NCBI GenBank assembly: GCA_022592445.1
Contig: JABYQR010000217.1
Span: forward strand, 1 to 64,000
Direction: 5' to 3'
Length of the DNA stretch: 64,000 nt
From: Cytidiella melzeri
Taxonomy: Eukaryota > Basidiomycota > Agaricomycetes > Polyporales > Irpicaceae
Position 1 is the first letter of the stretch. The number at the start of each line of letters is the position of its first letter. The notes beneath the pieces are model-generated. The model made no database searches, was not told the origin of the DNA, and was given only the letters and a program-made list of their open reading frames with translations. Made by a program: the position numbers and the translations under genes. Of this stretch, positions 397 to 45,926 are shown piece after piece.

Positions 397-519
397 TAGT
401 CTCGGAACCAGCCGTTATGGACTGCCTGTTTTGGGGACGGAGTGCGAAAAAGACGAGACAGAGAGGCATCCAAACGTCTGGTGAGTCTCGTCGAGAGGGA
501 TGTGGGTCATCCGCACGTG
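397..519. repeat. E1 left terminus: inverted repeat with hairpin
   Basis: Order from the end inward: TAGTCTCGG (397-405); stem arm starting ACCAGCCGTT (407-427); loop box GGAGTGCGAAAAAGAC (439-454); second stem arm ending AACGTCTGGT (464-482); GGGATGTGGGTCA; and the palindrome CACGTG (514-519). The right terminus repeats this order in inverse orientation. Confidence 0.85.
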
Positions 520-673
520 TCGTCATTGATCGCATTCGCAACTGAGAATGGAGCCCACGTGACACAGCGCGTCGCGTCCACAACGCGTCCACTAATGGGC
601 GTCTGCCATCATCGTGCTTGCGCGAACTGTGTTCGCGTACTCTTTTTTTTGTCTCCCTCGTCTCCCTCTCCTC

Positions 674-679
674 TATAAA
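674..679 (+). promoter_or_regulatory. TATA box of the E1 helicase gene
   Basis: TATAAA after a pyrimidine-rich run, 69 bp upstream of the ATG chosen at 748. It argues against the upstream in-frame ATG at 691, which would lie only 12 bp from the box. Confidence 0.5.
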
Positions 680-747
680 TTATCTAGACTGTGTTTATTC
701 ATATCCTCAATTATCAAAAAACCATTCCATATGACACCAGCACTCTA

Positions 748-3625
748 ATGGCTGACCCGAGCCAGTCTTCACTCATTAGTGAGTTACCCTCGACCTCGAC
801 CACTAATTCTCCCGCTCCCACTCCTGGACTTCCCCTGGCAAGCTCCGTTGAAAATAATTTGCGGTCCACTCTTGAAGATGCAGAACTACTCCCCCCTGCA
901 TGCCCGAAGACAAGACAGCACATACAATCCTATGAAGTCCTCCAGTCAGCTCGAGAGGTAGCCAGTCAGGACAAGGACCGCAGGTACTCATCGTTTGTAA
1001 CCCAGACGCGAATGGAGTGTGAGCTAAGACAACGAGCCAATGGGATGACACCACGGTGGTATCAGAGGGACTGCGCGGAGGCGGCGTTCCTTGGAGTCGA
1101 CACAGGCTTGATCTGCAGCACGGGTTCTGGCAAGACGGAGGCGTTCATGTTGATACTCCTCGCAGATCCGGAGTGCAAGAGCAAGCTGCTCATAATATCT
1201 ACTCTGAATGCGCTCGAGGTTGACCAGGTGAGTAAAGTGTGATGGATATATCATTGCCTGTCCGACTGACCTGACTATATGCGCTTCGAAATGACAGGCA
1301 GAGAGATTCGCGCGCAGAGGCATTACAGCGGCAGCTGTAAATGGAGAGACATACTCTGACGAGCTACACCAGGTGAGTCATTTCACTTTCAATTAGCAGG
1401 GTGTCACCGGTGTTTATCTGTAATCTAGCGTCTCATGAACAATGAAGTTCGCGCTATCATCACCTCTCCAGAAATGATGTTTCAACATCCTCGTTTCTCG
1501 GAGCTTGTTCGCAGCTCATCGTGGATGAAAAACGTTGCCGCTACTGTTATTGACGAGGCGCACTGTGTTATTGAGTGGGGGAAGGAGTTTTGCAGGGACT
1601 TTGGTCAAGTTGAGAAGACTCGTTCGCTGATGACCCGAAAGCCAATATTCTTCTGCACCGCCACACTCACTCCTGCAATGCTAGACGAATTGCTCACCAA
1701 GCTCTCATTCTCACGGGAACGCATGTTCATTCTAAACCTTGGCAACGAGCGTCATAACATTACCTCTGTGGTCTGTCGCCTCAAGAATCCAACGGACTTT
1801 GGTGCACTCGACTTCGTATTGGATGAAGCACTTGCTGGACACGAGCTAGTTCCTGCACTTATTTATGTCAACACGCGCGAGTTGGCAATGAGAATATGGC
1901 TTTACCTCCTCAGTCTCCTTCCCCGCAACTCGACATACCGTGAACAAATTGAATTTGTTATTTCGACGCGCGATACTGTCGTGAAGGAGCTGGTCATCAA
2001 GCTCTTCATGCTTGGCCTGATGAAGATCATTGTTTCGACGGAGTCCGCGGGCATGGTAAGTCTTACGTTGTTTATAAGAACCAAAGTTTCTCATTGAAGG
2101 ACAGGGTCTTGACGTTCCACACCTCCCCCGAGTCATTCAATTCCAATCCACCAGAACACTTGTCGAGTGGGCGCAACACGGCGGCCGCGGTGGACGCAAC
2201 GGCAAGCCAGCCTACGCATTGATGCTTGTCGAGCCTTCAGTATTCCAAATCACCAAGAAGCGAAAGCCACGCACCTCAACAAAGGAAAAAGCAACAGGCG
2301 ACACCGCAGTAAAGCAGGAAGAGGTTCCTGTTGTACTATTGCCGCGGGGAAAGCGAAAGCGCGAGGAACATGATCAAGACAACGAAGGAGAACCTGAGGA
2401 CCAGGAACAAGCATCCGCACGTACCAAGGATGCTGAGAGATCTGGGGGTGTAAACGAGGAGGAGAACAGCGATGACGATAACGATAGCGAAGACGTCCAG
2501 TATCGCAAGAAGATGGAACCAGCGATGCACGAGTACCTTACTACTCCGTTATGCCGCAGCCTTGTCACGAAGTCTCATTTCAATAATCCAGTTCCCCCAT
2601 TGCGAGGTACGCTTCATTGAATCATTTTCGGCCCCACTAACATGTTGCAATCAGAACGCGTAGTCTGTGACTGCGATAATTGCATCCTCGACAAAGGCAA
2701 TGATCCAAGCACGCCCCTTACTGAACACGACGTCGCCATCCTTAATTTGATCCGCCGCCTTACCGCTAGACTCACAGACGTCGAAATACTCAGCCCCATC
2801 AGTCCGGAGGAATTTGCTAGGCAGTCGCTCTCTGATCCAGCTCCAAAGCGCAACCGCAAGCGTACGGCTATTGTCAAGGATGCTCTTCTACAATTCAGGG
2901 ACTCATACTGGCGCAAGCACTATGTACATTCTGGGTTTCCGTCTCAAACATTACTCCTTGATGCTTTCTTGACGACGCTATCAGCTGAAACAAAGATCAA
3001 GACTCTGGACGATCTGAAACTAGCTCTACCTGAGGAGCTCGGCCCTGATGCCCTTGCCTGTATTCAGGAGGCAGACTTGCCTTGGATTGAGAAGCACGAA
3101 GCAGAAAAACGGAATCGCGCCACGGTTAAGAAAGCAAAAACGGCCAGCGAAAAGCCCGCAAAGAAGATGAAAGAACGCGACGACCGCTATCATCAACGTG
3201 AGAACAAGCGAATTGCAAACAGAGGAAAGCCTCGGAAGAAAGCAGGAGACTGGGAAGTATATTCTCCGCCGGGTGATGCTAGCAAAATTCCTCCGTCGTA
3301 CTCTATGCCGTCTACTCCTCACAGATCGACTCCTTGCGGCTTGCCCGTACCTGTAGGCTATTATACTTGTCCTACAACACCTGCATACCTTTCCCCCCTT
3401 GCAACTCCACCGACGCTTGGAATACAGCAGGCATTGCCAATACCCTACACCCCTCTTCCCTCGTTTTTGCCGGTCACTCCCATTGCATCATCGTCTCGTA
3501 CTACTCTACATGATTCATATCCCACACCGCAGAGCATCCGAGCTGAACCACAGCAGTCTAATCATACTTTGCAGTATCCGTCTTTTTATTGGAAGCCTGA
3601 TTCTCGTTCTGCAGACCCCATGTAA
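748..3625 (+). CDS. RecQ-type ATP-dependent DNA helicase of E1
   Basis: Five exons are inferred: 748-1227, 1298-1372, 1429-2055, 2105-2606 and 2655-3625. They total 2655 nt (884 aa), all with GT-AG borders and consistent phases. Visible superfamily 2 motifs are Walker A STGSGKTE (about aa 122), DEAHC (about 226), motif III FCTATLT (about 259), and motif V GLDVP followed by motif VI QHGGRGGRNG (about 418). After an acidic/basic linker comes a RecQ-like zinc cluster (C-R-S...C-D-C-D-N-C), then a lysine-rich segment and a proline/threonine-rich tail. No RQC or HRDC domain is recognised. RecQ proteins unwind DNA 3'-5'. Here the gene sits inside a transposon with hairpin termini, so a role in processing ends or replicating the element is likely but inferred. 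The start was chosen from the TATA position. Confidence 0.88.
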
Positions 3626-3663
3626 TTTTGCACGTAGCTGATCAAATCACATTCTTTACCACA
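3626..3663. other. 38-bp convergent intergenic gap of E1
   Basis: It separates the stop codons of the two convergent genes. The gap in E2 (37286-37323) has exactly the same length, so the two genes travel as one unit. Confidence 0.8.
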
Positions 3664-6523
3664 CTAAATCACAGTCGCGTCTGAGGAAGAGTCCGTACAC
3701 ATCTTGTCCTTAAAACGCTGGATTAATATATCTACGTCGTCAAAGACCTCTGCGTCTGATTTGCTCTTCACCCGTTTACTCGCCCACCTGTCAATCATGG
3801 CCTGCAGAGTCTTCGGGTTAGATCCAATGGCTATAAAGTCCTTCACCTTGTGCTGAGATGTGAGGTGACGTCCTGGCTTGTGTACATGCGCTTCGGCTTC
3901 ATGATACTTGCTCTGAAGCTCTGAGACATCACGCTCGTGGTCTGGTGACGTGTGCGATAGTCCTCGCCGAAAGTGATTGAACTCGCGTTCAACATGGTGC
4001 TTGATTTTGCGTTGAGTAGGGATAGACGCAGAAATTTTTTTGATGTAATCCCACGTTGCGAATGGGCCCAGTACTGCGAAAATAACCTTGTGGCTCTCCA
4101 ATCAACAATATGTGCAAATTGGTAAAGGGATACTCACCTTGATATCCCGAATGTTGTGCTCTTGAACCATATCGAATGCAAGAAATCCATTCTCAAGCCC
4201 GGTGGTGTTTGCAAGCCAGCAGAATCTCATAATAAAAGATCTAAGACGTGTCAGACAGGAACATGATAGGTTAAAGGAAAACGCACCTGAGATCTGCCGG
4301 CCATTCGCGCCACAGCCCCTGCATGAGTTCCAATATCTCTTGAGCATACTTGTGACTGCCGCCTCGGTGGAATCGAAAGAGGAGACGGGGAAGGAGATAC
4401 TCCATACGGCCTACGTCGCCAGTCTTCATGCAGTCGTCCAAGTCAAGGTAATCGAGCGTGTCCCGGTTAAACTGTACACTGACGTCGAAGAGGTCATCTT
4501 GCTGGGCGCGAGACTTCCCAGCCTCTCTGAGCTCAACAAGGGCCTCTGTAGAGGCATAGCGGTCCACAATCTGCTTCGCCAGCTGACGGAGTTGTGCTGG
4601 CATACGTTCTCGGAGCTCTGCTAGATCTTCAACACCTGCGGCAACTGACCAGACATCGCGGAACCGCGCCTCAGCCGTATGCTTCAGCGCGTCGCGAAAC
4701 GAATAATGGAAGTTACCTAGAGTTGAGTAATGGGTCAGTACAAGCAGTTGGAAGCAGATAACGACTTGCCCTGCACAGACGTTGTGTTCAGGCCCTTGCG
4801 CTTCATGTTCTCGAAGGCGTGCTTCAGCCCAAGATTCTCACTTGACCCGAGATACTGTTTGTGCATAGAGAACTCCTGCGCGATCTGAGCGTGGAACCAA
4901 CCAAAGATTTCGAAGAAGCGTTCGAAACGTTGAACAAAGTTCATGTCGAATGCGCGGTCCTTCTTGATGCTGCGAATACGAACAGTTGTGAGTTGATCTC
5001 CGATCCAGACAAGAAGCCGACTCAGGGCTGGTTCCTGAGTTCCCTTGTCGCCGCTGAGGGAGAGCTGCCGTAGCCACTCCTCCAAAACCTGCCGGTTGCC
5101 TTCCTGAGACGCCTCCTCCATGTGTACCGTGTCCAGCATATACTGAACAGTTGCGTGCTCCTGACCGACAGGGAGCTGGTAAACGGGAGCAGGGCGATCA
5201 AAGGCGGAATGGTTCTTGTACTCCCAGTCTGCAAACGCGGGTGCTTGGAGAAGCAGCTGCATTACCATGTATATTCGCTGCTCATAGAGACGAGGGCCAT
5301 ACTCGTTCGCTTTGTGGAAGATGTCGAGGGCAGTCAATGGATTGGTACACTCACGAGTGCGTTGTTCCATGTACGCGACGCGATCTGGTGGCTTTACCGA
5401 CGCGTCCTTGACAATGTATATTGTCCCAGCAGTGCCGCTATCGAAGTGGGATTGTTTGTTCATGCGTTGCTCGTAGATCCTGAACGCGAGGTTGAGGTTA
5501 TCGTGGCCGCCAAAGAATATGTGTTTCAGGACGTCGTCCAGCATACGACGACGGTTGGACTCGGAGATGCGTTCGACGCCGGTGTACACCCACTTCTGAC
5601 TCATGGTAAGTCCGAAGAGGTGTGTCGTGTCATTCGCTTTGGCCGCGAGTCCAGAAGCCTTCAGATAGATGCTAAGCAGCTTTTGGTAGCGGCAGCGGTT
5701 GTGTGAGCGTCCGTAGTGTAGCATCGATCCAATCATAAATATGCGCTATGAACAGATATTAGCACAATATGACAGTGCGAGCCGGGGGACTTACTGCACT
5801 GTGGTCCTTGTATTTGTTCCTCTTCTCCTGGAGTGGCGTGCACGAGAGGGAATGCATCAGCTTCCAGAACGTGGGCTGTGCGGCTTGCATCTTTGGGATG
5901 TCGTCCTTGAGCCTGATGGAAAGGAGATGCTCTTCAGATAGCTCCTTCTGTGGCGAGAGCAGCTGGGGGGCGAATAGGCGCATCTCGCGGTTGATACGCG
6001 CCGTGACGTTGTTCAGTGCCCAGGCGTCCATGGCAGCTCTTGCGGCACGAGTGCGGACGCCCCTTTGGTGAGGGCGCGGCGGCTTATACCACCGGTTCAA
6101 GATACCGGGCAATTGCTCGCTATGCATCAGCGCGGTTTGTGCGTACCTATTAATTATCAGGTTAGAGAGGCCCGAGAATGTGTCAGAAACTTACCTGATG
6201 GTGCCCTCAATACTCGTCTCCGCTGCGGGGATCTCTAAGTTCCAGCTGAGATAGTGTAGGAATGTGGTGGTGTCCATCTGAACGTCAGCCATGAACTTGA
6301 TGATGTTAACGAGCTTTTGTGCGATGACCAGGTCGGGCATGGTCTTCAAGTGGTTCATGAACAAGGTTGTTCGACCTAGCGGTCCTGTCTTGCTCGTGGA
6401 CCAAATGTCAACGCGCAGCTGCTCTTCGGCCGACAAGGGGTCATCTTCATCCTCGTGGCGTTCATCGTCGTCGTCGTCGAGTTCCTCGTGGTCTTCGTCA
6501 TCTTGAACATGAACGGGTGGCAT
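3664..6523 (-). CDS. DUF6589-family protein of E1, candidate transposase
   Basis: Six exons on the minus strand: 6195-6523, 5795-6146, 4770-5745, 4287-4716, 4138-4240 and 3664-4086. They total 2613 nt (870 aa). The start at 6523 gives an N-terminus MPP..., matching the second copy. The first 50 residues are strongly acidic. The middle carries FGGHDNLNL (D about residue 308), then GTIYIVKD, GDQLT (D about 476) and GWFHAQ...HKQYLG...HAF, the conserved run I associate with DUF6589 proteins of mushroom-forming fungi. Two spaced conserved aspartates in DN and GDQLT contexts would suit an RNase H-fold nuclease, but this is inference. The intron at 4717-4769 has a GC-AG border and is missing from the E2 copy. 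No membrane segment or signal peptide is seen. Confidence 0.85.
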
Positions 6524-6720
6524 GCTGGAAGCACAGCAAGAGCGTGGAGAGTAGGCAATGGACTGAAAACATAACAAGAAGTGTCAGACGCGCCGAGTGA
6601 TGAGACAACGCTGCCGACTTGCTACTCACAATGTAGCCCTTTTGCGTGTACCGTAGGTGTCAAGCGCGCCGCGAAGAGGGCAAAATGTTGGGAATGAAAA
6701 CAAGTACGGTGGGGGGGGAC

Positions 6721-6774
6721 GTTGGAGGCGATACGGGGGACGAGCACGTTGGAGGTGATACGGGGGACGAGCAC
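6721..6774. repeat. 27-bp tandem repeat, two units
   Basis: Two units of 27 bp (6721-6747, 6748-6774) with one mismatch, each containing GATACGGGGGACGAGCAC. They lie inside E1 between the DUF6589 start and the right terminus, in a 6524-6906 stretch with no gene. Confidence 0.8.
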
Positions 6775-6906
6775 GTCGTAGTGGCCGTCGACTGCAGCTT
6801 CACATGTGCGGGAAATCGGACGGGAGAGCGTTTACTCAAAGTTTTTAGATTAGATTACAAGGCCTTCAATTGATCTAAACGCTCGCTGACTTCAGGCCAT
6901 CCACGG

Positions 6907-7047
6907 CACGTGCTAATGACCCACATCCCCCTCTACGAAGCACACCAGACCCTCAAGCCTGCGGCCTGTACTGTCTTTTTCGCACTCCGCGGCTTGATTA
7001 GGAAGGAGCCCTGGCGACGTCTGCTTGAGGGTCTGGGTACGAGACTA
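6907..7047. repeat. E1 right terminus: inverted repeat with hairpin
   Basis: Mirror of the left end: CACGTG (6907-6912), TGACCCACATCCC, stem arm ACCAGACCCTCAAGC (6944-6958), loop box GTCTTTTTCGCACTCC (6973-6988), second arm GCTTGAGGGTCTGG (7023-7036), then CGAGACTA at the terminus. The stem bases differ from those of the left end but pair with each other. Confidence 0.85.
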
Positions 7048-7056
7048 TATCCCTGG
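7048..7056. repeat. Target site duplication of E1, right copy
   Basis: TATCCCTGG, identical to 388-396. Confidence 0.93.
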
Positions 7057-7091
7057 TACTCGGAAGGAGGGTCCGGAAGAAGAAGCACAGA

Positions 7092-7595
7092 GACTTGAGG
7101 TTAATCTCCCACCCAATTGTCCTAATCAAACTCCGCTAGGCGCAGGCTGATGGCAGCAAACCGAGAGCTCGGCGGGGGACTTGGGTGATTTGTGAGCTCC
7201 TCAACAGCTAGTCACATAGCAATCTTAGGCAATTACATGGGACAATAGATATGATTGAAGGGTACATATTTCAGTATATAAGAGGGTACATACTTTAGTA
7301 TATAACACTGTTACATAGTGTACAAAACCTTACTGATGTGAGTCTTCCAATTCCCCCTTTATAGTAAAGCTCTATTCATGCCTCTGTCAGGCTCTTTGTT
7401 TATTCTATTTGCACTGCTCACATACTCACACATGTTTCACAGTGTATCATGGCTGCTTAGATTGCGTTTGGAACAGCTGCCCTTTCCCTTTTCTGGTAAA
7501 GCTCTATGTATATCTTTGCCATGCTATGCTTCTGTTTCCTTGGTTCTCTCAACTTACGCAGGTTTTGTCTTCTGTTTGTGCTGCTTGCATGCTCA
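7092..7595 (+). repeat. Left arm of the element C inverted repeat
   Basis: Inverted match to 11660-12163, roughly 80-90% identical by eye, including TTAATCTCCCACCCAATTG near the outer end and GGCTCTTTGTTTATTCT further in. A related unit (cytosine/thymine-rich, with GTGTATCAT and GGAACAGCTGCCCTTTCCC) occurs twice in direct orientation at about 7420-7500 and 7585-7665, so the arm contains its own tandem duplication. The short open frames here are by-products of the repeat. Confidence 0.8.
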
Positions 7596-8941: not shown

Positions 8942-8989
8942 CTTTTTATATACCCTAAGGACCCTCTCCTAAACCTTTCCTTCTATGTC

Positions 8990-29195: not shown

Positions 29196-29570
29196 ACAAA
29201 ACATTATCGCGCTTTATATTGCGTGCCGGGGGTTTATCGCGCGCGCTTGACATTATAATGATGTCCGCGTAAGGCAGGTCGTTTATATTGCATTGTAAAG
29301 GCCAAGTGGCATGCGGTAAGCAATTTTAAACTAATGTAAAGGCCCAGCACTCGATGTAAAGCAGTAGTGTCAGTAATATATTACATTGTTAACCATTATT
29401 ACAGCTGTCACATCATGTCACACCGCGTCTGGGACCGGATGCAAGGCGCTGGCAACCACGACGTCGAAGTATGTATGTAGTGCGCTGTGATAAACAGCCA
29501 CCACCACGTCCTTTACACACGACCACTATTGTCAACGCCCTCTTTCGTGACATGACGGGAACAATGCAAA
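29196..29570. other. Left subterminal region of the gene-carrying element
   Basis: AT-rich, with TATCGCG repeats and three (A)TGTAAAG motifs (about 29295-29360). From about 29400 on, the composition changes and may be the promoter of the captured phosphatase-subunit gene. Confidence 0.5.
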
Positions 29571-31211: not shown

Positions 31212-31618
31212 TTTATTAATTCCTTACCCGCCGTGGTTAACGACTGTTATACATCAGTGCACACATGACGAGCAAGCTACGCCATGCATATGACCCGCCT
31301 CTCAGCAGCACACCCTGTGGCGTGCATTGGACGGGGGTGACATGAGTGTGAGAAAGTTGGGGCTTCGTAGGTCAGGAAGCCTCCAAAACTTCACATGTGG
31401 TGGATCGACGGGCCCCTTCACACTTCCCTACCCCATCTTCGGCGCTCTCGCTCTTGCCGTCATCGTCTCCCCCCAACCACCATCTCCTCTCTCTCTCCCT
31501 GCTGCTCATCAACGACGACGCCCTACACGATCAGCTCTACCGTCCCCTCGACTCTCTGAGTGCGGTCGTAGACCTCAAGCGACGCCGCATTCACCCGCGC
31601 AAGTCTATTCCTATTCAA
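31212..31618. other. Stretch between captured fragments
   Basis: Open frames exist on plus (31327-31770), but with low-complexity composition and no recognisable domain. It is probably 3'/5' flanking DNA of the captured genes. Confidence 0.4.
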
Positions 31619-34149: not shown

Positions 34150-34158
34150 CCTGTTTCA
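34150..34158. repeat. Target site duplication of E2, left copy
   Basis: CCTGTTTCA, repeated perfectly at 45927-45935. Confidence 0.93.
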
Positions 34159-34307
34159 TAGTCTCGAACCAGACGTTAAGGGAGAGCGCGGACGTCGCCG
34201 ATGCTCCTTCCTTGTTTGGAGCGCGGAGTTCGAAAAAGACACAATGAACCGCGCTCCTTAACGTCTGGTGTAATCGGTCAGTGGCGGGTACCGCTCAGTC
34301 GCACGTG
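34159..34307. repeat. E2 left terminus: inverted repeat with hairpin
   Basis: TAGTCTCG at the end, stem arm ACCAGACGTTAAGG (34168-34181), loop box GGAGTTCGAAAAAGAC (34225-34240), second arm CCTTAACGTCTGGT (34256-34269), then GGTACCGCTCAGTCGCACGTG ending at 34307. The long arms also pair GAGCGCGG with CCGCGCTC next to the stem. Confidence 0.88.
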
Positions 34308-34469
34308 CTCGAAATCGAAGACTTTTCGAGATCATCAGCGGGCGCCTGATTATTTTTATTCGCGTTTCATGTGTAGATTAGATAACGTGACCCTTGATGA
34401 AATCCATCACAACCTCGTGTTTCGTCTCTCGTCGTGGCCCTCTTCGATTGTTTCTCTCCCTCGCTCTTC

Positions 34470-37285
34470 ATGCCGCCTGGATTTCCTTTCCCCCCTATCT
34501 ATGACCTTGATCCTGACGACAACGAACAACACGACAACGAGATTCCTACAATCACGGATGCGGAAGCGGACGAAATCCAAGCTCGACTTCATCGACGCGG
34601 TGGCATGGCACGCACAAACCTCGCGTTCCAGTCGCTCGCAAATCTGGACCACGCAACAATTTCCCGTCGCCTCGTTTCCGTTATCGACTACATGGCGACG
34701 CAAGGACTGGACACCGTCTCGTTCCTACACTACCTGAGCTGGAATTTGGAGATCCCGGGGCATATGGTGTCGGAGCAGTCGACTATCCGGTGAGTAACAA
34801 GTTGTATATTTTTTTGCTTAACTAATCAAGATCAGATACGCTCGCACTGCACTCATGCACTGCGAGCAACTTCCTGGGATACTCAAGAACTGGCACAAAC
34901 CACCTCGCGGACACGAACGGGGTGTCACGACGCGAGGCGCCCTCAGTGCCATGAACGAGTGGGCCGTTGACAACGTCAAGGCACGACTCAACCGCGAGAT
35001 GCGCGAGTTCGCGCCGCAGCTCAAATCGCCCCCGAGGACATGTCGGAGGAATACCTCCTCGGCATCCGACTCAAGGACGACATCGAGAGAATGAAGACCA
35101 TGATGCCTACATACTGGGACATCATGGACTCTCTCTCGTGCACACCCCTGCAGAAGAAGCGCAGGAAGACAAAGGACCACGAGCCGGTAAGTAAACATAT
35201 TTTCCGCATGGATTTAGAGCTCACACGTTCCATAGCGCATCTTCATCAGCGGTACCATTCTCCACTACAACCGGTCGCAGCGACGTTGTCGCTACCAAAA
35301 ATTCCTCAGTATCTACCTCAAGTCGTGCGGTCTCGCAGCCAAGGCGAACGACACCACACACCTTTTTGGCTTCACCATGAGCCAAAAATGGGTTTACGCT
35401 GGTATTGTCGAGCTTTCGGAGTCGAATCGACGCCGAATGATCGACGATATCAGCCGTTACATCTTCTTTGGCGGTCACGACAACCTGAACATTCCGTTCA
35501 GGATTTACGAGATGCGCAACAACCACCAAAACCACTTCGACAACGGCACATGCGGCACCATCTACATTGTCAAGGACCCCACAGCCGTCGCTCCCAACCG
35601 CATCGCTTACATGGCGCAGCGCGCTGCTGGATGCCAGAACCCCATCACCGCGCGGGATGTTTTCCAGCACGAGATCGCAGCCGCCCCTCGAATACGCGAG
35701 GACCATATCTATCTCATCAAGAAACTCCTCCTGATGCATCCCGCCTTTGAAGACTGGGAGCACCGCACTCACCCCCTCTTTTCTCGTCCCGATCCTGTCC
35801 AACAGCTCCCTACTGGCAAGGCGCATGCAACTTGCCAGTACATGCTCGACACCGTCCACATGGAGGAGGCCTCGCAGGAAGGCAACCGGAAGGTTCTACA
35901 GGAATGGCTCCGGCAGGTTGATCTCAACGGTGAACGCGCACTCCGTGAACCATTCCTCGACCGCCTCATCGTCTGGATCGGCGATCAGCTCACCACCACT
36001 CGTATACGGTCTGTCAAACGCGACCGAGCTTTCGACATGAATCACCGCCAACGATTTGAACAATTCTTCGAAATCTTTGGCTGGTTCCATACACAACTCA
36101 ATGAGGAGATGACGATCCGGAAGCAACACTACGGCACCAGCGAGAACCTCGGACTCAAGCACGCATTCAACAACATGGGTCGCAAATCACTCCACGCCGC
36201 TGCCACAGTGCAAGGCACTTTCCACTACGACTTTCGCAGCACTCTGAAACACACCGCCGAGGCTCGTTTCCGCGACATCTGGGCCACTGTTGGCAAAGCC
36301 AAAGATGTCGCAGACTTGATGCTTGCCACACCCTACACCCTCCATGATCTCGCTGTCAAGATCTTTGAGGACTTTGCCTCTACCGGAGCTCTCGAGAAGC
36401 TGCGCAAGCGTCCGCGTGCAGAACAAGACGACCTGTTGATCCAGGGTGTCATGTTCTGTCGCGATGTTCTCAACTATCTCAACTTCGACGACGCGATGGC
36501 CACAGGCGATGTTGGTCGCATCGAGCTGATGCTACCACGGCTCCTCTTCCGCTTCCATGGAAGCGGCAGCCACAACTACACCCATGAGCTTCTCGAAATC
36601 ATGCAGGGCCTCTGGCGTGAGTGGCCGGATGATCTGAAGTAAGTTCCTCACGGTTCTTCGTGCTGTCATACTAAAATATTTGACAGATCTTTCCTGATGT
36701 GTTACTGCTGGCTCGCAAACACGACAGGACGCGAGAACGGATTCCTGGCATACGACATGGTCCAGGAGCACAATGTTCGGGATATCAAGGTGAGCTTATT
36801 GGCCGTTTTTCTTCATGTCTCTTGTGCTCACAATTACATTACAGGTGATATTCGGAGCTCACGGTCCCTACGCGACGTGGGACTACATCAAGAAAATCTC
36901 TGCCTCTATTCCCACCCAGCGCAAGCTCAAGGACCACGTCGAGCGGGAATTCAACCACTTTCGCCGCGGCAAGTCTCACACCTCTCCTGAGCACGAGTCC
37001 GACGTTGTTAAGCTACAAGGGAAGTACCACGAGGCAAATGCGCATGTGTACAAGCCTGGCCGCCACATCCCAGCTGACGAACGTATCAAGGATGTATTCC
37101 TGGTTGGCTGCAATCCGGTCGCGCTCAATGCCATGATGAAAAGATGGTCGGACAGACGTGTGAAAGAGAAGTTGACAGCTGAAAACTTCGACAGCCCAGA
37201 AAAAATCCTTCGACAGTTAGATAATCTCGCATCAGACTCGCGGTATGCATCTGCAGACAGTAATGAGGTTGAATCCGATGTATAG
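34470..37285 (+). pseudogene. DUF6589-family protein of E2, one frameshift
   Basis: Exons 34470-34789, 34836-35186, 35236-36638, 36687-36789 and 36845-37285 total 2618 nt, one base short of a whole number of codons. The break lies in a run of five C at 35029-35033: upstream reads FAPQLKSPP, and downstream the conserved MSEEYLLGIRLKDDI is in another frame. E1 has one more base in this exon. The rest matches E1 throughout: FGGHDNLN, GTIYIVKD, MLDTVHMEEASQEGNR, WIGDQLTT, GWFHTQ, WLANTTGRENGFLAYDM and DYIKKISASIPTQRK. The exon homologous to E1 exons 3 and 4 is continuous here, so the GC-AG intron of E1 is absent. A sequencing error in the C run could mimic the lesion. Confidence 0.85.
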
Positions 37286-39221
37286 CCTGTATCTGAAATT
37301 GCAAAATAATCATATTCATTTATCTAGAGGCGCCACACGAACGACTGAGATGTGTATGTAGGTGATGCTGAATGTTCAATGCTACGCGAAGACGATGCTG
37401 CGGGTGTAAGGGGAGGAGTCGAATAATGCAATGTGGGTACATGAGATGGTGCAAACAATGCTGACGGAGTGACAGGAGTAAACAAAGTGAATGGGGATGA
37501 TGCAGGTGTAACAGGATTGAATGGCATAGGCGGAGAGTCGAATGTTTGACGTGCTGATGGTAGCCCTGGAATTGGGAGAGTACCTGACGTCCATGGAGAG
37601 GGGTAGCTTGTAGCGGTAACAGGAGTAAACAGCGCGAACGGAGAGGCAAAAGTGTGGGAAGCTGAGGCTTGTGGCGTACGATAGTCCGGAGTCAAGGGCA
37701 CAGTGTAGTAGCCTGAAGTAATAGCATGGGCTGATGGAGACGGGTGCAGAGGAGTTGTTGGAGATGAAGACGTAGAAGTAGATGATGCAGCGGCAGTGGA
37801 AAATTTCCCATTCTCTGGCTGGAATTGCTTGAATCCATCTCCGTGCTTCTCAGTCAGCCTAGCCAGACGAAGTTCCTCACGTTGGCGCCATCGGGTTTCC
37901 CGCTCAATTTCGTCGTTCATCGGCTTGTTCTTTGCAGTTTCAGCCTTTCGTTCCACATTCTTTTGTCCTTTTGTAGCACTATTTTTAGCCAGCCAGCAAG
38001 AGTCAACGTTCGCGATAGTCTGAAGCACACGAGGCCCAAGATCCTCAGCAAAGATCCATCCCGGAAAGCCAAGCTCCAAGTCAGCCATAGTTGTAATCTT
38101 CGTCGAGGCAGCAAGAGTTTTGAGCATGTCGTCAGGTAGGAGGCTCTCCGAAGTGAAAATCGAGGTTGATTGATGATGTTCGCGCCAGTACTCTTCACGT
38201 AGGTTCAGCAGAGATTGTTTGACCGCAGTAAGACGGTTGGTGACTCGTTTCTTAGCCTGATCCGCAAACGTAGCCAGCTCGATTGGAGGTAAGATGCAAA
38301 CTTCATGGAACCGAGAATCGAGGCGATTAATCAGATTTATGATAGTGATGTCGTGCTCGGTGAGAATAATGGGATTTGAGGGATTGCTTCCCCTCGCGCG
38401 CAAGCAGTTGTCACAGCAAACAACGATGAGATCTAGGCATATGTGAGTGACATTTGACGTGAGTAAACAAATCAAATACCGTGCATAGGGGGATGTCCAT
38501 CAAAGTGTCGAATAGTAATCTTTCGTCGGCATTCGTTGGTAAGTGCAAAATCCCTCATATTTCCCTCTACATTCTTGCGGTACTGAACATCCTTACCATC
38601 CAGGAAAGCCTCCTGCGTGCCAATATCGTTGACCACGGCACTCTCGTCTATTGCCTGCTGATTGCGTGCGGGATTAGAATTATGATCTTCTAGAAAATTA
38701 CGTTCAATGGTGCCTCGTGCCTGTGCCTGATCTGTGCCTTTGCGCTTGCGCTTTCGCTGCTTTGGTAAACCTTCGTCGACCTCCTCCACTTTCACACTAT
38801 CGGGTGCCATGCTTGCAGAGGGTATTTCTGTCCCCTTGCCCTTCTGCGATGCTTGACGATTAATCACCTTGGACACTGAAGGCTCCAATAACAATAAGGC
38901 ATAGGCTTGTTCGCCACCACGACCAGCGCGTCCAGCATGTTGTTGCCACTCGAGAAGGGCACGAGGAGTGCCGAACTGTACCATCCGTGGCATTCCCGGA
39001 ACATCCAGACCCTGTAAGTGAGAGTTTCATCAAACAACGATAGAATACGTGCATCTTGAAGCTTACCATGCCAACACATTCCGTTGAGACAAGAATCTTG
39101 ACAGATTTCCTCAAGAATTTCCCCAACACTATTGTCTTCACACTCTCGTCCCGAGTCGAGATCAGGAAATCCATCTGCGAGTGGTAAGGTGAGTCGGCTG
39201 AAAGTTTACTTGTGAGATGCA

Positions 39222-39226
39222 TCCAG
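39222..39226. repeat. Target duplication of the copia element, left copy
   Basis: TCCAG, matched by 44486-44490. One more base (A) on each side also agrees with the LTR edge. Confidence 0.85.
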
Positions 39227-39400
39227 TGTTTAACTATTCTGTCTTCGTACTACTTAGCGCGCGCTTAGTGCCGTAGTTACCGTATATAAGACTTACTTTG
39301 ATCAATGCACTGCTATCGCTTTTGATCCCCAACTCTCTGTGTGACCACCACCTCAGTCTTCTCTCTCAACGCTCTCAACTCTCCTGATACCTTGTTAAAA
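39227..39400 (+). repeat. Copia 5' LTR
   Basis: Starts TGTTTAACT and ends TTGTTAAAA, with a TATA-like CGTATATAAGAC at about 39284. It differs from the 3' LTR only in TTAGTGCCG versus TTAGCGCCG. Confidence 0.93.
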
Positions 39401-39412
39401 GGTTATGAGCCC
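39401..39412 (+). promoter_or_regulatory. Copia primer-binding site
   Basis: GGTTATGAGCCC directly after the LTR is complementary to the anticodon stem-loop of initiator methionine tRNA. That is the half-tRNA primer type known from copia elements. Confidence 0.7.
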
Positions 39413-39468
39413 CGCCTAAAGCTCATATCTTCACTCTACTTCACTTTTACAACCACTCCTCTCTGTTT

Positions 39469-42400
39469 ATGAGCTCTGATCTCGCTGATCAAGCTCAACT
39501 TCGTCGCTCCACTAGAGAGCGTCACCAAACCAACTTCCTCAGGGGTACCAGAGCTCAACCCCGCCAAAGAACAACCACCACTCGCAGGACAACCCCCATA
39601 TTCACTCCTACTCCTTCTCCTGCTCCTACTACACCTCCTCCCTCGATGTCTGCCACAACTATCACAAAAACCGATGCTCCCTCAGCTGGACCATCCAACT
39701 CTAACGTCCCTGACGTCGAACCCCAACCCAGTCACAACGACAACCACTCTTCCAGCTCTGAGGATCGTGAGGCGGTCCCAGGTGCTCGCCATGTCTCTGC
39801 TCCCCCAGCTGATCGCCGTCGCACCCCCTTCGATACTCTTCGCGATGATGATCGCCGTCGTCACCCTCATGGAGGAGACGATGACAGTGACGACGACCGT
39901 ATGGATGAGGATGAGAGGCCTTGTCGACGACGTGAGAAGCGTCCTGCTCGCCGTCCGACAACTCCCCCTCCTCCGGGCAGCTCTCCTGGTGGCTCGCCGC
40001 CGCCTCCTCCGCCTAGCTCCATAGGCACTAGGTCGACACGCGAAGTGTCACAACTTCTGTCTGTGCCACCTGGCCACAACAACAACTTCACTATGTCGCT
40101 AAGCGACATTAACAAAGCCTTCTCTGATGTTGGCAAGCTTACTGGGGCAGACACTTGGCCGATGTGGAAGTTCCGCGTCGAGACCGCTATGTCTACTATA
40201 CTGGAGTTCCACACACTCCGAGGTGGTCTGACCGTACCTCAAGAGGTTACGCGGGCTGTCTTCAACGTCCTGACCGGTCATATCTCTGACTCGGTCATGG
40301 CCAACTACCTCAATGAGTACAAGCCCCACGTACTCATGGACAAGCTGCGTGAACGTTACGATCCGAAGACCACTGTGTCTGACGCGAACGAAATTTACCA
40401 GTTGTTCCACCTTCGTCGTCCTATCTACGAGATGGACAAGCTGCTCGATGACGCCACTAATATCCGCAGAAAGCTTATCGCTGCTGGTGTCGACATCCCC
40501 GACCATATCTTCTACGCTGCCATCATCGGGATTATCCCTCCTGCCTATGCCGCCACACGTCAGAACTACGAGGTCGGCGTGCGTTCTTCTACTCCAGCTG
40601 GAGAGAAGTTCCGCTATAGGCCTAATGCGCTCATCGCTGAGCTTCGTCGCGAGTTCACCAACTGGCGACTCACGCACCCCCCAAAGACTTCCGAGTCCAA
40701 GAGGCCTACCACTTTCGTCCCAAAGGACAAAGCTCACGCTCCTTCGGCTTCGCACGCCAAGGGCAAGGCCGCGGTTGAACGATCGACCAAAACCACCACT
40801 ACTGCTCGCGCGGCTGCAGCTCCCTACTCGTCGAGCAAGCCCTCCACTTCTAGTCAGGGCAACTGCTTCAACTGTGGTCAGCCTGGCCACATGACGCCGA
40901 CTTGCCCTCTGCCCTGGACTGAGAAGTCCAAAGCTGCGATGAAAAAGAAGGGCATCACTCGCAAGTCCACTGCCGCCGCCGCTCAAGGCAAGAAGAAAGA
41001 GTCCGCCGCTGCCGGCTCTTCCACTGCTACTGGCTTCATGGCCAACGTCACTGCCACTGCTGACTCGGACGAAGAGGTCCTCGAGAACCCTCACCCAAGC
41101 GCGTGGGTGAAGTCTCTTTCTAACTCGGACGTGACGATGCACGTAAGTACTCGTACCATTTCTTCTACTTTACTTCCACTGTTCGCAACTTTGTCGTCTG
41201 ACAAGTGCGTTCATGTCATCGATACTGGTGCTACTATACACTGTACACCATATCGTGACTTACTTTTCAACGTTCACTCTGTACCAACTATTTTACTTAC
41301 TGTTGCCAACTCAGAGCAAATAAGTCTCAAACTCGCTGGCGACATGGTACTGGAGGTTGAACAGGAAAATGGTACGCATAATCAACTTATGCTAAAGAAT
41401 GTCTACTATAACTCACAACTACCCTTCACGCTTATCAGTGTTTCAAAATTGGACGCTGATTATCGCTTTACTTTCTTCTCAAATACTTGTACTATATATG
41501 ACTCAAACGCGTCTTGTGTAGCTGTGATACGAAAAATACACGATTTGTATTCACTTAACTCTACTCGCGTGACTTCTTTAGCAAGCGTGCATAAGTCTGG
41601 TATAACGATGCTTGAACTTCATAAAAAACTCGGTCACATCAGTTATTTCCAGATAAACAAACTACTTGAAACGTCCAAACTTATCATTACTACTCATATC
41701 ACTGACCGCACAGAAACTCCGTGCGAGGACTGTATCTTGAATAATATTCATCGTACTCCAGTCCCCAAAGCTCGTACTTCGCCGTTGGCTACTTCCTTCG
41801 GTGATCACTTTCATATCGACATCTTTGGGCCACTACCCACTGCGTCGATTACTGGTCATTATCTGTACTGGTTGACTATCGTCGACGACTCAACTCGATG
41901 GTTAACACTTGCGCCATTAAAAACAAAAGATGATGCCTTTACTCAATGGGTTATCTTCTCTACTGAGCTTCTTACGCAATACAATATTCGCGTCAAGATT
42001 CTTCAATCTGACAACGATGGCGTATTCACTGGTGCAAATATGACAAACTACTTGAAGTCACAAGGTACTATACCCCGGCTTACTGTGCACGATACTCCTG
42101 CACAAAATGGTGTTGCTGAGCGCACACACCAGACTATTATGAACTTGGTTCGTGTAAACCTACACACAGCTGCTTTACCGAACCGGTTATGGTGGTACGC
42201 TGCGCTTCATGCGGTTTATCTCTATAATCGCACTCCTCGTGCTCCTCTTCAATACAAAACTCCTTACTTTAAACGCTATGGTACTGAAGCGAACCTTGAT
42301 GCGCTTCAAAAGTTTGGTCAACCGTGTATCGTATACGACGAATACCGAACCAATAAACTCGCGCCAAAAGGCAAGCGCGCCGTTTGGATAGGCTTTGCTG

Positions 42401-44304
42401 AATATTCCAAAGGCCACTACGTTTACTTTGGAACACGCGTAGGCGTCGAACGAAACTTGCAATTTGTTGACTCTACGGCACAAATTGAAGGGGAGAAAGA
42501 ACCAAATATCGAACAACCTACTCTTGAAAAACAACTTCAACTCGAGGAGAATCCTCATGTTGAACCCATGGACATCGACGAGCCTGACCCTTCTGGTCCT
42601 AGGCGTACTACTAGAGAGCCTAAGCCTTCGCGAAAAGCTCGAGGCTTAAACTATGATGAAGTCGATACAAACATTGCCTTCTACTTGACTGAATTCAATG
42701 CATACTACGCTGAAGACGTCGGTGATCCAGTTACTTACAAAGACGTACTTAACCACCCACTCAAAATCGACTGGCTCAAGTCGATGAAAACTGAGGTTGA
42801 TACCCTCGAACAACTTGGCACTTGGGAATACTGTATCCCGCCGCCAAATGCGAACATCACTGGTTCGCGCTTTGTCTACAAAACAAAATACGAACACGGC
42901 AAAGTCACTAAACTCAAGTCAAGACTTGTCGCGCAAGGATACTCCCAGCGTGACGGTATTGATTACTACTCAAACGACTTATTCGCACCTGTTGCGCGTA
43001 TGAGTTCACTACGGTTTGTACTTACTCTCGCGGCTTCACTACACTTCGAGATTACTCAGCTCGATATCAAGTCCGCATACTTATACGGTAACATCCACGA
43101 CGATGAAGACCTTTATCTTCGTCCACCTCCTGGTGACTTACTTCCAAACCTGCCACCTGGTTGGGTACTTAAACTTCGGAAGACTATCTACGGCCTTAAG
43201 CAAGCCGGACGTCGTTGGTACAAAGTACTATGCGACATACTCTTTGCACTTGGACTGAAGCGTTGTGAATTCGACAACGCAGTCTTCTACCTCTATCGAG
43301 GTGATAAACTTATACTTCTACTTGCTGTCCATGTCGATGACATTACTCTTGGCACTATCACTACTACTGTTGCCGAAAAATTTGAGATCGCACTCAGACA
43401 ACATGTCGAACTTACTAACGGTGGAACTATCCACTGGATGCTTGGCATGGAAGTTGCTTATGATAAAGCCGCAGGCATTATCAAGCTTCGTCAAAGGGAT
43501 TATATCCTGAACATACTTAAGCGATACAACTTTGACCACGAACATTCACGCCGTACACCAATGGTACACGAGCACAACTTAGCCCCCCGTGCTGTGACCG
43601 AACCACGTCAGGACGCTGACGCCATTACACACTACATGTCTCTTGTTGGTGGCTTACGCTACGTCGCCGACAGTACTCGACCAGACATTGCTTATTGCAC
43701 TGGTCAACTAGCACGATACTTATCTGACCCTGCTAAGGAACACTACGCTGCAGCTAAACAGTGTTACCTTTACCTCAAGGGAACGTGCGACTACTGGCTT
43801 GTCCTAGGAAACCAAGCCAACCCTACTTCTACTTCACTCGTAGGTTATGCCGACTCTGATGGTATGACTACGTACGGCAATAAACCAATAATGGGCTATA
43901 CTTTCACATACAACGACTCGCTTATCTCTTGGTCAAGTAAGCGCGGTTCACTTGTAACTTTATCGGTCACCGAAGCCGAACTGTACGCACTTGCTCATGC
44001 GTCTACAGAGGCCATCTATTTAAAGAGCCTCATAAATGAAATACTTAACTGCACTATGGACCCTGTCAAACTATACACCGACAGTGCGTCAACTCTTGCG
44101 ATTGTTCGTTCCCCCGAGGAACAACACTCTCAACGTACTAAACACTTTAACATTCGCAAGAACTTCATCAGCGATCGTGTAACTAAAGGGTACATCACTG
44201 TGCACCACGTACCTTCTGCCGATCAACGTGCTGATACTCTTACTAAAGCACTACCTCTCGAAAAACTCAAGCACTTCAATGAACTACTTCATGTTCAGGC
44301 TTGA
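39469..44304 (+). CDS. Copia gag-pol polyprotein, intact
   Basis: 1611 aa. The N-terminus is basic and proline/threonine-rich. A gag core is followed by a CCHC knuckle NCFNCGQPGHMTPTC (about aa 465). An aspartic protease has VIDTGATIHC (about 583). The integrase has the zinc region GHISYFQ...CEDC (from about 722), then catalytic D in HIDIFGP (about 783), SDNDGVF (about 846) and E in NGVAERTH (about 882). The reverse transcriptase starts near 1134 with RFVYKTKYEHGKVTKLKSRL and has the active site AVHVDDIT (about 1290). RNase H has YADSDGMT (about 1460) and TEAELYAL. Domain order protease-integrase-reverse transcriptase-RNase H defines copia. No stop or frameshift was found. Confidence 0.95.
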   Translation: MSSDLADQAQLRRSTRERHQTNFLRGTRAQPRQRTTTTRRTTPIFTPTPSPAPTTPPPSMSATTITKTDAPSAGPSNSNVPDVEPQPSHNDNHSSSSEDREAVPGARHVSAPPADRRRTPFDTLRDDDRRRHPHGGDDDSDDDRMDEDERPCRRREKRPARRPTTPPPPGSSPGGSPPPPPPSSIGTRSTREVSQLLSVPPGHNNNFTMSLSDINKAFSDVGKLTGADTWPMWKFRVETAMSTILEFHTLRGGLTVPQEVTRAVFNVLTGHISDSVMANYLNEYKPHVLMDKLRERYDPKTTVSDANEIYQLFHLRRPIYEMDKLLDDATNIRRKLIAAGVDIPDHIFYAAIIGIIPPAYAATRQNYEVGVRSSTPAGEKFRYRPNALIAELRREFTNWRLTHPPKTSESKRPTTFVPKDKAHAPSASHAKGKAAVERSTKTTTTARAAAAPYSSSKPSTSSQGNCFNCGQPGHMTPTCPLPWTEKSKAAMKKKGITRKSTAAAAQGKKKESAAAGSSTATGFMANVTATADSDEEVLENPHPSAWVKSLSNSDVTMHVSTRTISSTLLPLFATLSSDKCVHVIDTGATIHCTPYRDLLFNVHSVPTILLTVANSEQISLKLAGDMVLEVEQENGTHNQLMLKNVYYNSQLPFTLISVSKLDADYRFTFFSNTCTIYDSNASCVAVIRKIHDLYSLNSTRVTSLASVHKSGITMLELHKKLGHISYFQINKLLETSKLIITTHITDRTETPCEDCILNNIHRTPVPKARTSPLATSFGDHFHIDIFGPLPTASITGHYLYWLTIVDDSTRWLTLAPLKTKDDAFTQWVIFSTELLTQYNIRVKILQSDNDGVFTGANMTNYLKSQGTIPRLTVHDTPAQNGVAERTHQTIMNLVRVNLHTAALPNRLWWYAALHAVYLYNRTPRAPLQYKTPYFKRYGTEANLDALQKFGQPCIVYDEYRTNKLAPKGKRAVWIGFAEYSKGHYVYFGTRVGVERNLQFVDSTAQIEGEKEPNIEQPTLEKQLQLEENPHVEPMDIDEPDPSGPRRTTREPKPSRKARGLNYDEVDTNIAFYLTEFNAYYAEDVGDPVTYKDVLNHPLKIDWLKSMKTEVDTLEQLGTWEYCIPPPNANITGSRFVYKTKYEHGKVTKLKSRLVAQGYSQRDGIDYYSNDLFAPVARMSSLRFVLTLAASLHFEITQLDIKSAYLYGNIHDDEDLYLRPPPGDLLPNLPPGWVLKLRKTIYGLKQAGRRWYKVLCDILFALGLKRCEFDNAVFYLYRGDKLILLLAVHVDDITLGTITTTVAEKFEIALRQHVELTNGGTIHWMLGMEVAYDKAAGIIKLRQRDYILNILKRYNFDHEHSRRTPMVHEHNLAPRAVTEPRQDADAITHYMSLVGGLRYVADSTRPDIAYCTGQLARYLSDPAKEHYAAAKQCYLYLKGTCDYWLVLGNQANPTSTSLVGYADSDGMTTYGNKPIMGYTFTYNDSLISWSSKRGSLVTLSVTEAELYALAHASTEAIYLKSLINEILNCTMDPVKLYTDSASTLAIVRSPEEQHSQRTKHFNIRKNFISDRVTKGYITVHHVPSADQRADTLTKALPLEKLKHFNELLHVQA

Positions 44305-44311
44305 AGGGGAG
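44300..44311 (+). promoter_or_regulatory. Copia polypurine tract
   Basis: The purine-rich GAAGGGGAG immediately before the 3' LTR is the expected start of plus-strand synthesis. It overlaps the polyprotein stop. Confidence 0.7.
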
Positions 44312-44485
44312 TGTTTAACTATTCTGTCTTCGTACTACTTAGCGCGCGCTTAGCGCCGTAGTTACCGTATATAAGACTTACTTTGATCAATGCACTGCTA
44401 TCGCTTTTGATCCCCAACTCTCTGTGTGACCACCACCTCAGTCTTCTCTCTCAACGCTCTCAACTCTCCTGATACCTTGTTAAAA
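44312..44485 (+). repeat. Copia 3' LTR
   Basis: 174 bp, one mismatch to the 5' LTR; followed by TCCAG (44486-44490). Confidence 0.93.
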
Positions 44486-45811
44486 TCCAGATCAGAATAA
44501 CAATCGCTCGCGTCTCAGTGTAGATCAACGTGGTGACCAGCTCTCGAGGCGGGTCTGCAAGAGCTTCATCAAGGACAAAGTCGAGGGCGCCGAAATCCAT
44601 TGGGCCTTTCATCGGACACACAATGGGCGTAACATTGTGACGTTCATTGCCGAGGTTTAGGAGGAAGCTGTTATGCCGAGGGAACGAGAGTTTGGTAAGC
44701 AGCTGGTCGAGCATTTTTGCGGTGAGCGTAGCAGTGCAGAACATGATTGGCTTGCGCGACATGTAGGATCGCGTCTTCTCTATATCATCAAAGTCGCGCC
44801 GAAATTCCTTTCCCCATTCCAACACACAATGCGCCTCGTCTACCACCATCCCGAGAAGGTTCTTCGTCCACTTAGAGTCTCGGACAAGCTGGGAGAAGCG
44901 GGGATGTTTGAAGACCATCTCCGGAGAGGTAATGATCGCGCGGATTTCATCTCGCGCAAGTCTCTGCACTACAGGTGAGCACCATCACATTCTCATGAAA
45001 TATATTTGGCGTACCTGATGCATCTTATCGTCATATGTCTCACCATTGACGGCTGCCGCGGGTATACCGTATCGCTCGAATCTTTCGGCCTAAAGGTACT
45101 CAGTAAGTTGTGAATCTTCTGCAGCAACTATTTGTACTCACCTGGTCCACCTCTAATGCATTAAGCGTCGATATCACCAGTATTTTGCTCCTTCTGAAGG
45201 GATCCGCAAGCAGTGGAAGCAGAAATGCTTCCGTCTTTCCCGAGCCAGTTGCGCAGATCAGCCCGGTGTTGATCCCAAGGAGAAAGGCCTCCGCGCAGTC
45301 CACCTGGAAGAACCGGGGTGCAATCCCATTGGCTATGCGTGCAAGCTCGCTCTCCATTCGCGCGCGCGCAACAAACGATGAATATCTGCGCTCGGAGTCT
45401 TGGTTGGCTGCATAACGAGCCTGCTCGAGATTTCGGTAAGACTCGAGGTGCAGCGCGGATTTCGGGCAGCCTTCAGGTAGCTCGACATCATCTTCACTGT
45501 TACTGAGAGCAGGGCGGTGTATCAGGGTGGTGTCGGGGTTTTTGGGATGAGCAGCGTTGGTCGTTTCCGTGGACAAGGTACTAGTATTCTTATTATTCTT
45601 TGCTGGCTGGCGCGGTCGAGGGGGCATCTTGACGACTCAGGGCTGAGTAGGGTTCATAAAAATCATTTATTATTGTTCAATAGCAGTATTAGAAGTATTG
45701 AGAGTGAGGGATACGAAGGGAACGAGATACAGAGAATACGAGGCCCATCGCGCATACAGCCATATAATGGGCGCTACACCCTGACGCACTGTCGACGCGA
45801 CTGATGGGAGT

Positions 45812-45926
45812 CACGTGCGACTGAGCGGTACGACCGAATTCACCAGACGTTTGCATACCTCGTTTTTTGTCTTTTTCGAACTCCGATTTCCAAAACAGGT
45901 ATCGCAAACGGCTGGTTCCGAGACTA
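45812..45926. repeat. E2 right terminus: inverted repeat with hairpin
   Basis: Reading forward: CACGTG (45812-45817), CGACTGAGCGGTAC, arm ACCAGACGTTTGCATACCT (45842-45860), loop box GTCTTTTTCGAACTCC (45869-45884), arm AGGTATCGCAAACGGCTGGT (45898-45917), CCGAGACTA at the terminus. Confidence 0.88.

What the first reader, a model, noticed from the sequence alone, without database searches (positions are those of the whole stretch)
397..45926. A mobile element family pairing a DUF6589 protein with a RecQ-type helicase
Seen in the sequence: two insertions (397-7047, 34159-45926) with the same inverted TAGTCTCG termini, two different perfect 9-bp target duplications, the same convergent gene pair, conserved intron positions and an identical 38-bp gap between the stops. 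Known: DUF6589 proteins are abundant and unexplained in mushroom-forming fungi, and RecQ proteins unwind structured DNA. Inferred: DUF6589 is the recombinase of a DNA transposon family and the helicase is its partner. This would explain the expansion of both gene families. I recall no described superfamily with this gene pair.
Basis: partly seen in the sequence, partly recalled or inferred. Interest (0 to 1): 0.96.

Follow-up and report, generated by a model that had tools for sequence, protein, structure and literature searches.

The report
Helicase-carrying fungal DNA transposons (AcademH type)
Two jumping genes in a wood-inhabiting fungus each carry a probable transposase from an unexplained protein family and a RecQ-like helicase; they look like AcademH, a transposon type already described in fungi, so this suggests a job for the unexplained protein rather than a new kind of element.

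Summary
Both insertions have exact TAGTCTCG inverted ends, perfect and different 9-bp target duplications, a convergent helicase/DUF6589 gene pair and a 38-bp gap between stop codons. The host matches Cytidiella melzeri. Five further copies in its genome have the same ends and their own perfect 9-bp duplications. Of 54 RecQ-like loci found, 39 lie within 8 kb of a DUF6589 locus, and 39 of 39 are convergent with it.

The claim of an undescribed superfamily is not supported. Passages of three papers say that Academ transposons encode RecQ helicase (2013), that fungal Academ carry DEAD/recQ_fam domains and are mis-annotated as host genes (2019), and that AcademH makes 9- or 10-bp duplications (2023). 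This fits AcademH (Kojima 2020; not held, not read).

Possibly new: DUF6589 (PF20231, "unknown function") would be the Academ-type transposase. Seven acidic positions are conserved in two divergent lineages, with D309-D477-E723 as candidate triad. Many ends carry a palindrome whose arms differ between elements but match within each, beside a RecQ partner. Against a universal rule: 47 of 86 DUF6589 loci showed no RecQ neighbour, and some pairs lack TAGTCTCG.

The parts
397..7047 (.). Element 1, complete, 6651 bp; both genes open after splicing
388..396 (.). Left 9-bp target duplication TATCCCTGG of element 1
7048..7056 (.). Right 9-bp target duplication TATCCCTGG of element 1
397..404 (+). Terminal inverted repeat TAGTCTCG, helicase end of element 1
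7040..7047 (-). Terminal inverted repeat TAGTCTCG, DUF6589 end of element 1
407..482 (.). Imperfect subterminal palindrome, helicase end of element 1 (ACCAGCCGTT...AACGTCTGGT); weak by itself
   Evidence: score 8, shuffled maximum 9; z -0.4
6945..7036 (.). Subterminal palindrome, DUF6589 end of element 1 (CCAGACCCTCAAGC arms)
   Evidence: score 14, shuffled maximum 9; z -2.7
748..3625 (+). RecQ-like helicase gene, 884 aa; exons 748-1227, 1298-1372, 1429-2055, 2105-2606, 2655-3625
3626..3663 (.). 38-bp gap between the two stop codons of element 1
3664..6523 (-). DUF6589 gene, 870 aa, probable DDE transposase; exons 6523-6195, 6146-5795, 5745-4770, 4716-4287, 4240-4138, 4086-3664 (third intron GC-AG)
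   Evidence: same length as and 99% identical to P0001
34159..45926 (.). Element 2, 11768 bp including a nested retroelement; inverted relative to element 1
34150..34158 (.). Left 9-bp target duplication CCTGTTTCA of element 2
45927..45935 (.). Right 9-bp target duplication CCTGTTTCA of element 2
34159..34166 (+). Terminal inverted repeat TAGTCTCG, DUF6589 end of element 2
45919..45926 (-). Terminal inverted repeat TAGTCTCG, helicase end of element 2
34168..34269 (.). Subterminal palindrome, DUF6589 end of element 2
   Evidence: score 14, shuffled maximum 11; z -4.4
45842..45916 (.). Subterminal palindrome, helicase end of element 2
   Evidence: score 11, shuffled maximum 10; z -3.0
34470..37285 (+). 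DUF6589 gene of element 2, broken by a frameshift near 35020
   Evidence: PF20231 1.7e-82 in one open piece
37286..37323 (.). 38-bp gap between the two stop codons of element 2
   Evidence: read
37324..45627 (-). RecQ-like helicase gene of element 2, interrupted by a Ty1/copia retroelement
39227..44485 (+). Ty1/copia retroelement inserted in the helicase gene of element 2; 5-bp duplication TCCAG, LTRs 99.4% identical over 174 nt

Best explanation
The two insertions are autonomous-type DNA transposons of the AcademH kind in Cytidiella melzeri: one intact, one broken. Shown: TAGTCTCG inverted ends, perfect 9-bp target duplications at seven sites, and a convergent pair of a DUF6589 gene and a RecQ-like helicase gene. 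Inferred: DUF6589 is a DDE-type transposase (candidate triad D309, D477, E723) that binds the ends, including inverted CCAGACG motifs, and joins them to target DNA with a 9-bp stagger. Inferred: the helicase unwinds the ends, or clears and repairs the donor or target DNA, during transposition. Whether the donor copy is cut out or copied is not known.
For: Seven elements with exact ends and perfect, different 9-bp duplications. A related unoccupied target of element 2 at C264:68-113, 40 of 46 identical across the junction with one copy of the 9-mer, one base different. 39 of 54 RecQ-like loci lie within 8 kb of a DUF6589 locus, 39 of 39 convergent, 0 divergent, 0 tandem; by my own arithmetic about 1-2 of 54 would be that close by chance, but the loci are related copies and not independent. 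Helicase: best solved relative Bloom helicase E=2.9e-24, TIGR00614 RecQ family E=6.6e-36. Acidic positions 309, 477, 626, 653, 658, 719 and 723 are conserved at 90% or more in both of two lineages (65 and 74 rows). Passages seen: RecQ helicase in Academ (PMC3627910); fungal Academ with PF00270 and recQ_fam, often annotated as host genes (PMC6416283); AcademH 9- or 10-bp duplications tied to the helicase (PMC10045372); AcademH as low-copy elements in Basidiomycota (PMC10799480).
Against: No Academ sequence was compared; Kojima 2020 was not held. No solved structure matches the DUF6589 profile, and fold prediction was off. TIGR00614 scores 124.1, below its cut-off of 219.8. 47 of 86 DUF6589 loci had no RecQ hit within 8 kb, though the searches score only the best candidates. 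No unoccupied allele was found for element 1 or the C667 copy. Two elements with exact ends (C173, C168) lack a duplication. AcademH is described from animals too, yet every organism name I saw beside DUF6589 hits is fungal (only 120 of 610 listed; many rows carry no name).
Confidence: 0.87

Rival explanations
1. A truly undescribed superfamily: DUF6589 is a transposase unrelated to Academ that independently acquired a RecQ-like helicase and a 9-bp stagger.
Against: The described AcademH has the same helicase type, the same duplication length and the same fungal phylum.
Confidence: 0.09
2. KolobokH: a Kolobok transposon with a RecQ helicase, described from fungi only.
For: [quoted passage not shown]
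Against: Here the helicase is a separate convergent gene, and none of the seven 9-bp duplications is the TTAA expected of Kolobok (the TTAA target is recalled, from no call). The only Pfam match of the partner is DUF6589.
Confidence: 0.01
3. Mutator-like (MULE) or KDZ elements, which also make 8- to 9-bp duplications, with a captured helicase.
For: Duplication length alone is compatible (recalled).
Against: No Pfam transposase family other than DUF6589 matches the protein at E up to 1.
Confidence: 0.02
4. Two host genes in conserved convergent synteny, with the ends a coincidence.
For: Such genes are annotated as hypothetical host proteins; convergent overlap can conserve synteny.
Against: Seven copies at unrelated sites with exact ends and perfect duplications, and nearly identical copies (98.6-99.0%) at different sites.
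Confidence: 0.01

Closest known systems
AcademH lineage of the Academ superfamily (Kojima 2020, Mob DNA 11:15; not held here, known through citing papers)
   Same: RecQ-like superfamily 2 helicase beside a transposase gene, 9-bp target duplications, presence in Basidiomycota.
   Different: Not known whether AcademH reference elements share TAGTCTCG ends, the convergent layout or the subterminal palindromes; DUF6589 as the Academ transposase is inferred here.
AcademX (Academ with an XPG-type nuclease; the XPG label is recalled)
   Same: Same superfamily if DUF6589 is Academ.
   Different: AcademX makes 3- or 4-bp duplications and encodes a nuclease (PMC10045372); here 9 bp and a helicase, no nuclease domain in the two proteins.
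KolobokH
   Same: Fungal DNA transposon with a RecQ helicase (PMC9587614).
   Different: Helicase downstream of a Kolobok transposase; here a separate convergent gene, 9-bp duplications, DUF6589.

Membership tests
AcademH | 9- or 10-bp target duplication | tested here: met
   Seven elements with perfect, different 9-bp duplications; length from PMC10045372 passage. Two further elements with exact ends have none.
AcademH | Encodes a RecQ-like superfamily 2 helicase | tested here: met
   DEAD and Helicase_C; Bloom and RecQ are the best solved relatives; TIGR00614 E=6.6e-36 but under its curated cut-off.
AcademH | Encodes an Academ DDD/E transposase | tested here: inconclusive
   DUF6589 has conserved acidic positions, with a candidate D309-D477-E723 triad, but no Academ sequence was at hand, no solved structure matches and fold prediction was off.
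AcademH | Terminal inverted repeats of the described AcademH type | not testable with these tools
   Inverted TAGTCTCG ends are present, but the AcademH reference ends could not be read.
AcademH | Found in fungi including Basidiomycota | tested here: met
   Window matches Cytidiella melzeri; AcademH in Basidiomycota from PMC10799480 passage.
AcademX | 3- or 4-bp target duplication and a nuclease | tested here: not met
   9-bp duplications; no nuclease domain in the two proteins of element 1.
KolobokH | Kolobok-type 4-bp TTAA target duplication (recalled) | tested here: not met
   Seven duplications of 9 bp, none TTAA.
Mutator-like / KDZ | Match to their Pfam transposase domains | tested here: not met
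   The only Pfam match at E up to 1 is PF20231.

The most novel reading that the evidence does not exclude
The ends of these elements are kept as DNA hairpins or cruciforms, not just as binding sites: the palindrome arms differ between elements yet match within each end, and the RecQ-like partner exists to open or resolve those structures so that the DUF6589 transposase can cut and join. DUF6589 as a whole would then be the transposase family of a helicase-dependent transposon group that makes up one of the large unexplained gene families of mushroom-forming fungi.
Probability: 0.2. Interest if true: 0.62.

Novelty: new member of a known kind. Interest (0 to 1): 0.36.

Why it matters
If DUF6589 is the Academ-type transposase, a family of unknown function and many 'RecQ-like' gene copies in mushroom genomes can be re-labelled as transposon genes, which changes counts of host helicases and gene-family expansions; PMC6416283 already warns that Academ genes are often annotated as host genes (passage). 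The varying but self-matching palindromes at the ends offer a concrete, testable reason why a transposon would carry a RecQ helicase.

Tried and rejected
New superfamily: set aside once passages in PMC3627910, PMC6416283 and PMC10045372 were found. KolobokH, MULE/KDZ and host synteny: see rivals. Unoccupied alleles for element 1 (41 matches, 2 of them its own flanks, the other 39 in a repeat of the right flank that starts at query position 179 or later, none across the junction) and for the C667 copy (6 matches, 2 own, none of the other 4 across the junction): none found. Relatives in viral contigs: 13 pattern matches, 0 confirmed. Rfam and tRNA scans of the window: 0 matches each. Ends of the distant C179 pair: about 760-bp inverted repeats (716 of 759 identical) at 22770-31854, but the longest flank word shared is 5 bp, so no target duplication was recognised. 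First assembly of loci used a wrong orientation for minus-strand loci (41933 conflicts) and was replaced (0 conflicts). A scan of C388 found an element end abutting another element's end but no complete short element.

Palindrome evidence against my reading: with ungapped scoring only 18 of 32 exact termini beat the highest of 60 mononucleotide shuffles. The 14 that did not include both helicase ends of the element-1 type (element 1 and C49), the C151/C121 DUF6589 ends, C201 and C212, and some octamers that are not element ends (the C579 row was taken from the wrong side). One of the 18 (C168 right) is a fold-back duplication of another kind. Folding 12 ends of 6 elements gave z of -1.8 or lower in 10 of 12 and -0.3/-0.4 in the element-1-type helicase ends. 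The arm-swap test used arms that I chose by eye: 6 helicase-end types (C17, C444 and near-duplicates left out) and 4 DUF6589-end types (C151/C121/C248 type, C201 and C212 left out; the C93 end was counted here although its side is undetermined).
Full report
What is there. The DUF6589 protein of element 1 is 99% identical over its full 870 aa to P0001, a Cytidiella melzeri protein on a contig of 104431 bases, the length of C49 here. Element 1 (397-7047) has exact TAGTCTCG ends, 9-bp duplications TATCCCTGG and two genes open after splicing; element 2 (34159-45926) has exact ends, duplications CCTGTTTCA and the same pair in inverted orientation. The octamer itself is not rare (4 found, mean 1.85, 11 of 100 shuffles reach 4); the pairing with perfect duplications is what counts. 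The gap between stop codons is 38 bp in both. By inspection, four of five DUF6589 introns are shared. Element 2 is dead as it stands: a frameshift near 35020 and a young Ty1/copia insertion (LTRs 99.4% over 174 nt, TCCAG duplication).

Genes. The DUF6589 protein matches PF20231 at 3.5e-109 and nothing else in Pfam at E up to 1; the helicase matches DEAD 3.5e-18 and Helicase_C 2e-08. By sequence the helicase is RecQ-like: Bloom helicase 2.9e-24 is the best solved relative, TIGR00614 6.6e-36 (124.1 bits, under its cut-off of 219.8).

More copies. A scan of the held stretches found seven elements with exact ends and perfect 9-bp duplications, all different: the two in the window plus C352:808-7590 (GGTACCAAC), C667:144520-151302 (CCTTCCCAC), C49:13949-22467 (GCTCCCTGA), C151:3096-9753 (TATTATCGC) and C22:75134-81889 (ACCTCTCGG). 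C173 and C168 have exact ends but no duplication. The C49 copy is 98.6-99.0% identical to element 1 in two pieces, with about 1.85 kb of extra DNA in its helicase gene, and in P0001 the otherwise conserved D309 is N. The pattern TAGTCTCGNNCCAGACG occurs 43 times in the genome with up to 1 mismatch (25 exact) against 4 for the reversed control. Of the 25 exact places, 12 are on contigs without any DUF6589 or RecQ hit (my count), so non-autonomous copies are likely.

Gene pairing. Merging the hits gives 86 DUF6589 loci, and gives 54 RecQ-like loci. 39 of the 54 have a DUF6589 locus within 8 kb; 39 of 39 are convergent, none divergent or tandem; 12 have none on the contig and 3 only further away. 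47 of 86 DUF6589 loci are unpaired at this sensitivity; all four searches score only part of their candidates (52 of 241, 102 of 216, 51 of 224, 30 of 184), so pairing is a lower bound. The pairing reaches a divergent lineage (C179 and others, first found with TIGR00614) whose members do not all share TAGTCTCG: C179 has about 760-bp inverted repeats, and C53, C24 and C725 show no exact TAGTCTCG in the held stretches.

Empty site. The element-2 target lies in a repeat; C264:68-113 is an unoccupied relative, 40 of 46 identical across the junction with a single 9-mer CCTGCTTCA. This is a related copy, not an allele. No unoccupied allele was found for element 1 or C667.

Likely transposase. Across 65 relatives of element 1 and 74 long relatives of the C179 lineage (of 120 listed, 610 matched), seven acidic positions are kept at 90% or more in both: D309, D477, D626, D653, E658, D719, E723. 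D309 (HDN), D477 (GDQLT) and E723 (QEHN) are my candidate DDE triad; this is inference.

Subterminal palindromes. Many ends start an imperfect palindrome about 10 nt inside TAGTCTCG, anchored by CCAGACG and CGTCTGGTG, with inner arms that differ between elements but match within one end. In an arm-swap test on arms chosen by eye, true pairings score 10.3 against 5.7 for swapped ones in 6 helicase-end types (1 of 720 permutations reaches the observed sum, the observed one itself) and 9.1 against 3.8 in 4 DUF6589-end types (1 of 24). Not all ends agree: 18 of 32 termini beat shuffles, and 10 of 12 folded ends have z of -1.8 or lower. Gene conversion between arms could produce the same pattern without function.

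What it is. Passages seen: PMC3627910 (2013) lists 'RecQ Helicase in Academ' after Kapitonov et al.. PMC6416283 (2019) says that fungal Academ encode PF00270 and recQ_fam domains and are frequently annotated as host genes. PMC10045372 (2023) says that AcademH generates 9 or 10 bp duplications and AcademX 3 or 4, linked to helicase and nuclease. PMC10799480 (2024) places AcademH in Basidiomycota, Ascomycota and Mucoromycota. PMC8290104 reports putative non-autonomous Academ elements in a mushroom. PMC9587614 describes KolobokH. Kojima 2020 itself was not held. On this evidence the elements are AcademH-type; the missing link is a direct comparison of DUF6589 with Academ transposases.

Mechanism. 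Shown: ends, duplications, gene pair, conserved acidic residues. Inferred: DUF6589 cuts and joins the ends with a 9-bp stagger; the helicase opens or resolves structured ends or the donor/target intermediates. Cut-out versus copy-out is undecided.

Novelty. The kind is known. The assignment of DUF6589 to it, and the varying palindromes, were not found in the library: 'DUF6589' 0 papers; 'PF20231' 1 unrelated paper; 'Academ' with 'subterminal' 3 papers in the listing, of which I saw only one passage of PMC3627910 on another point. Absence from this open-licence library is not absence from print.

Noticed in passing
13100-15409 (+): Open frame with Transposase_21 (tnp2), PF02992 E=1.5e-7: another DNA transposon.
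   Followed up: no
23988-29195 (+): 1735-aa frame with endonuclease, reverse transcriptase and RNase H domains: a LINE-type retroelement.
   Followed up: no
60618-63119 (+): Frame with reverse transcriptase, RNase H and integrase domains in the Ty3/gypsy order (order recalled).
   Followed up: no
48233-49423 (-): Frame with a helix-loop-helix domain, PF00010 E=1.1e-9.
   Followed up: no
L035/L050 region, C248:6693-6703: A helicase-type end and a DUF6589-type end of two elements stand back to back with 9 bp between them; in C22 (near 75110) and C388 (L075) an element end also lies in or against the end of another element. Possible preference for inserting at other elements' ends; three cases only.
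   Followed up: partly
L014, C168:66130: The right end of this copy is followed inward by an inverted duplication of its own terminus (29-nt perfect arms) and the copy lacks a target duplication.
   Followed up: no
P0001 (C49 copy), residue 309: The near-identical C49 copy has N where D309 is otherwise conserved, so that protein may be inactive while element 1 keeps D.
   Followed up: no
7092-7206: The right flank of element 1 lies in a repeat found at 39 other places in the genome.
   Followed up: no
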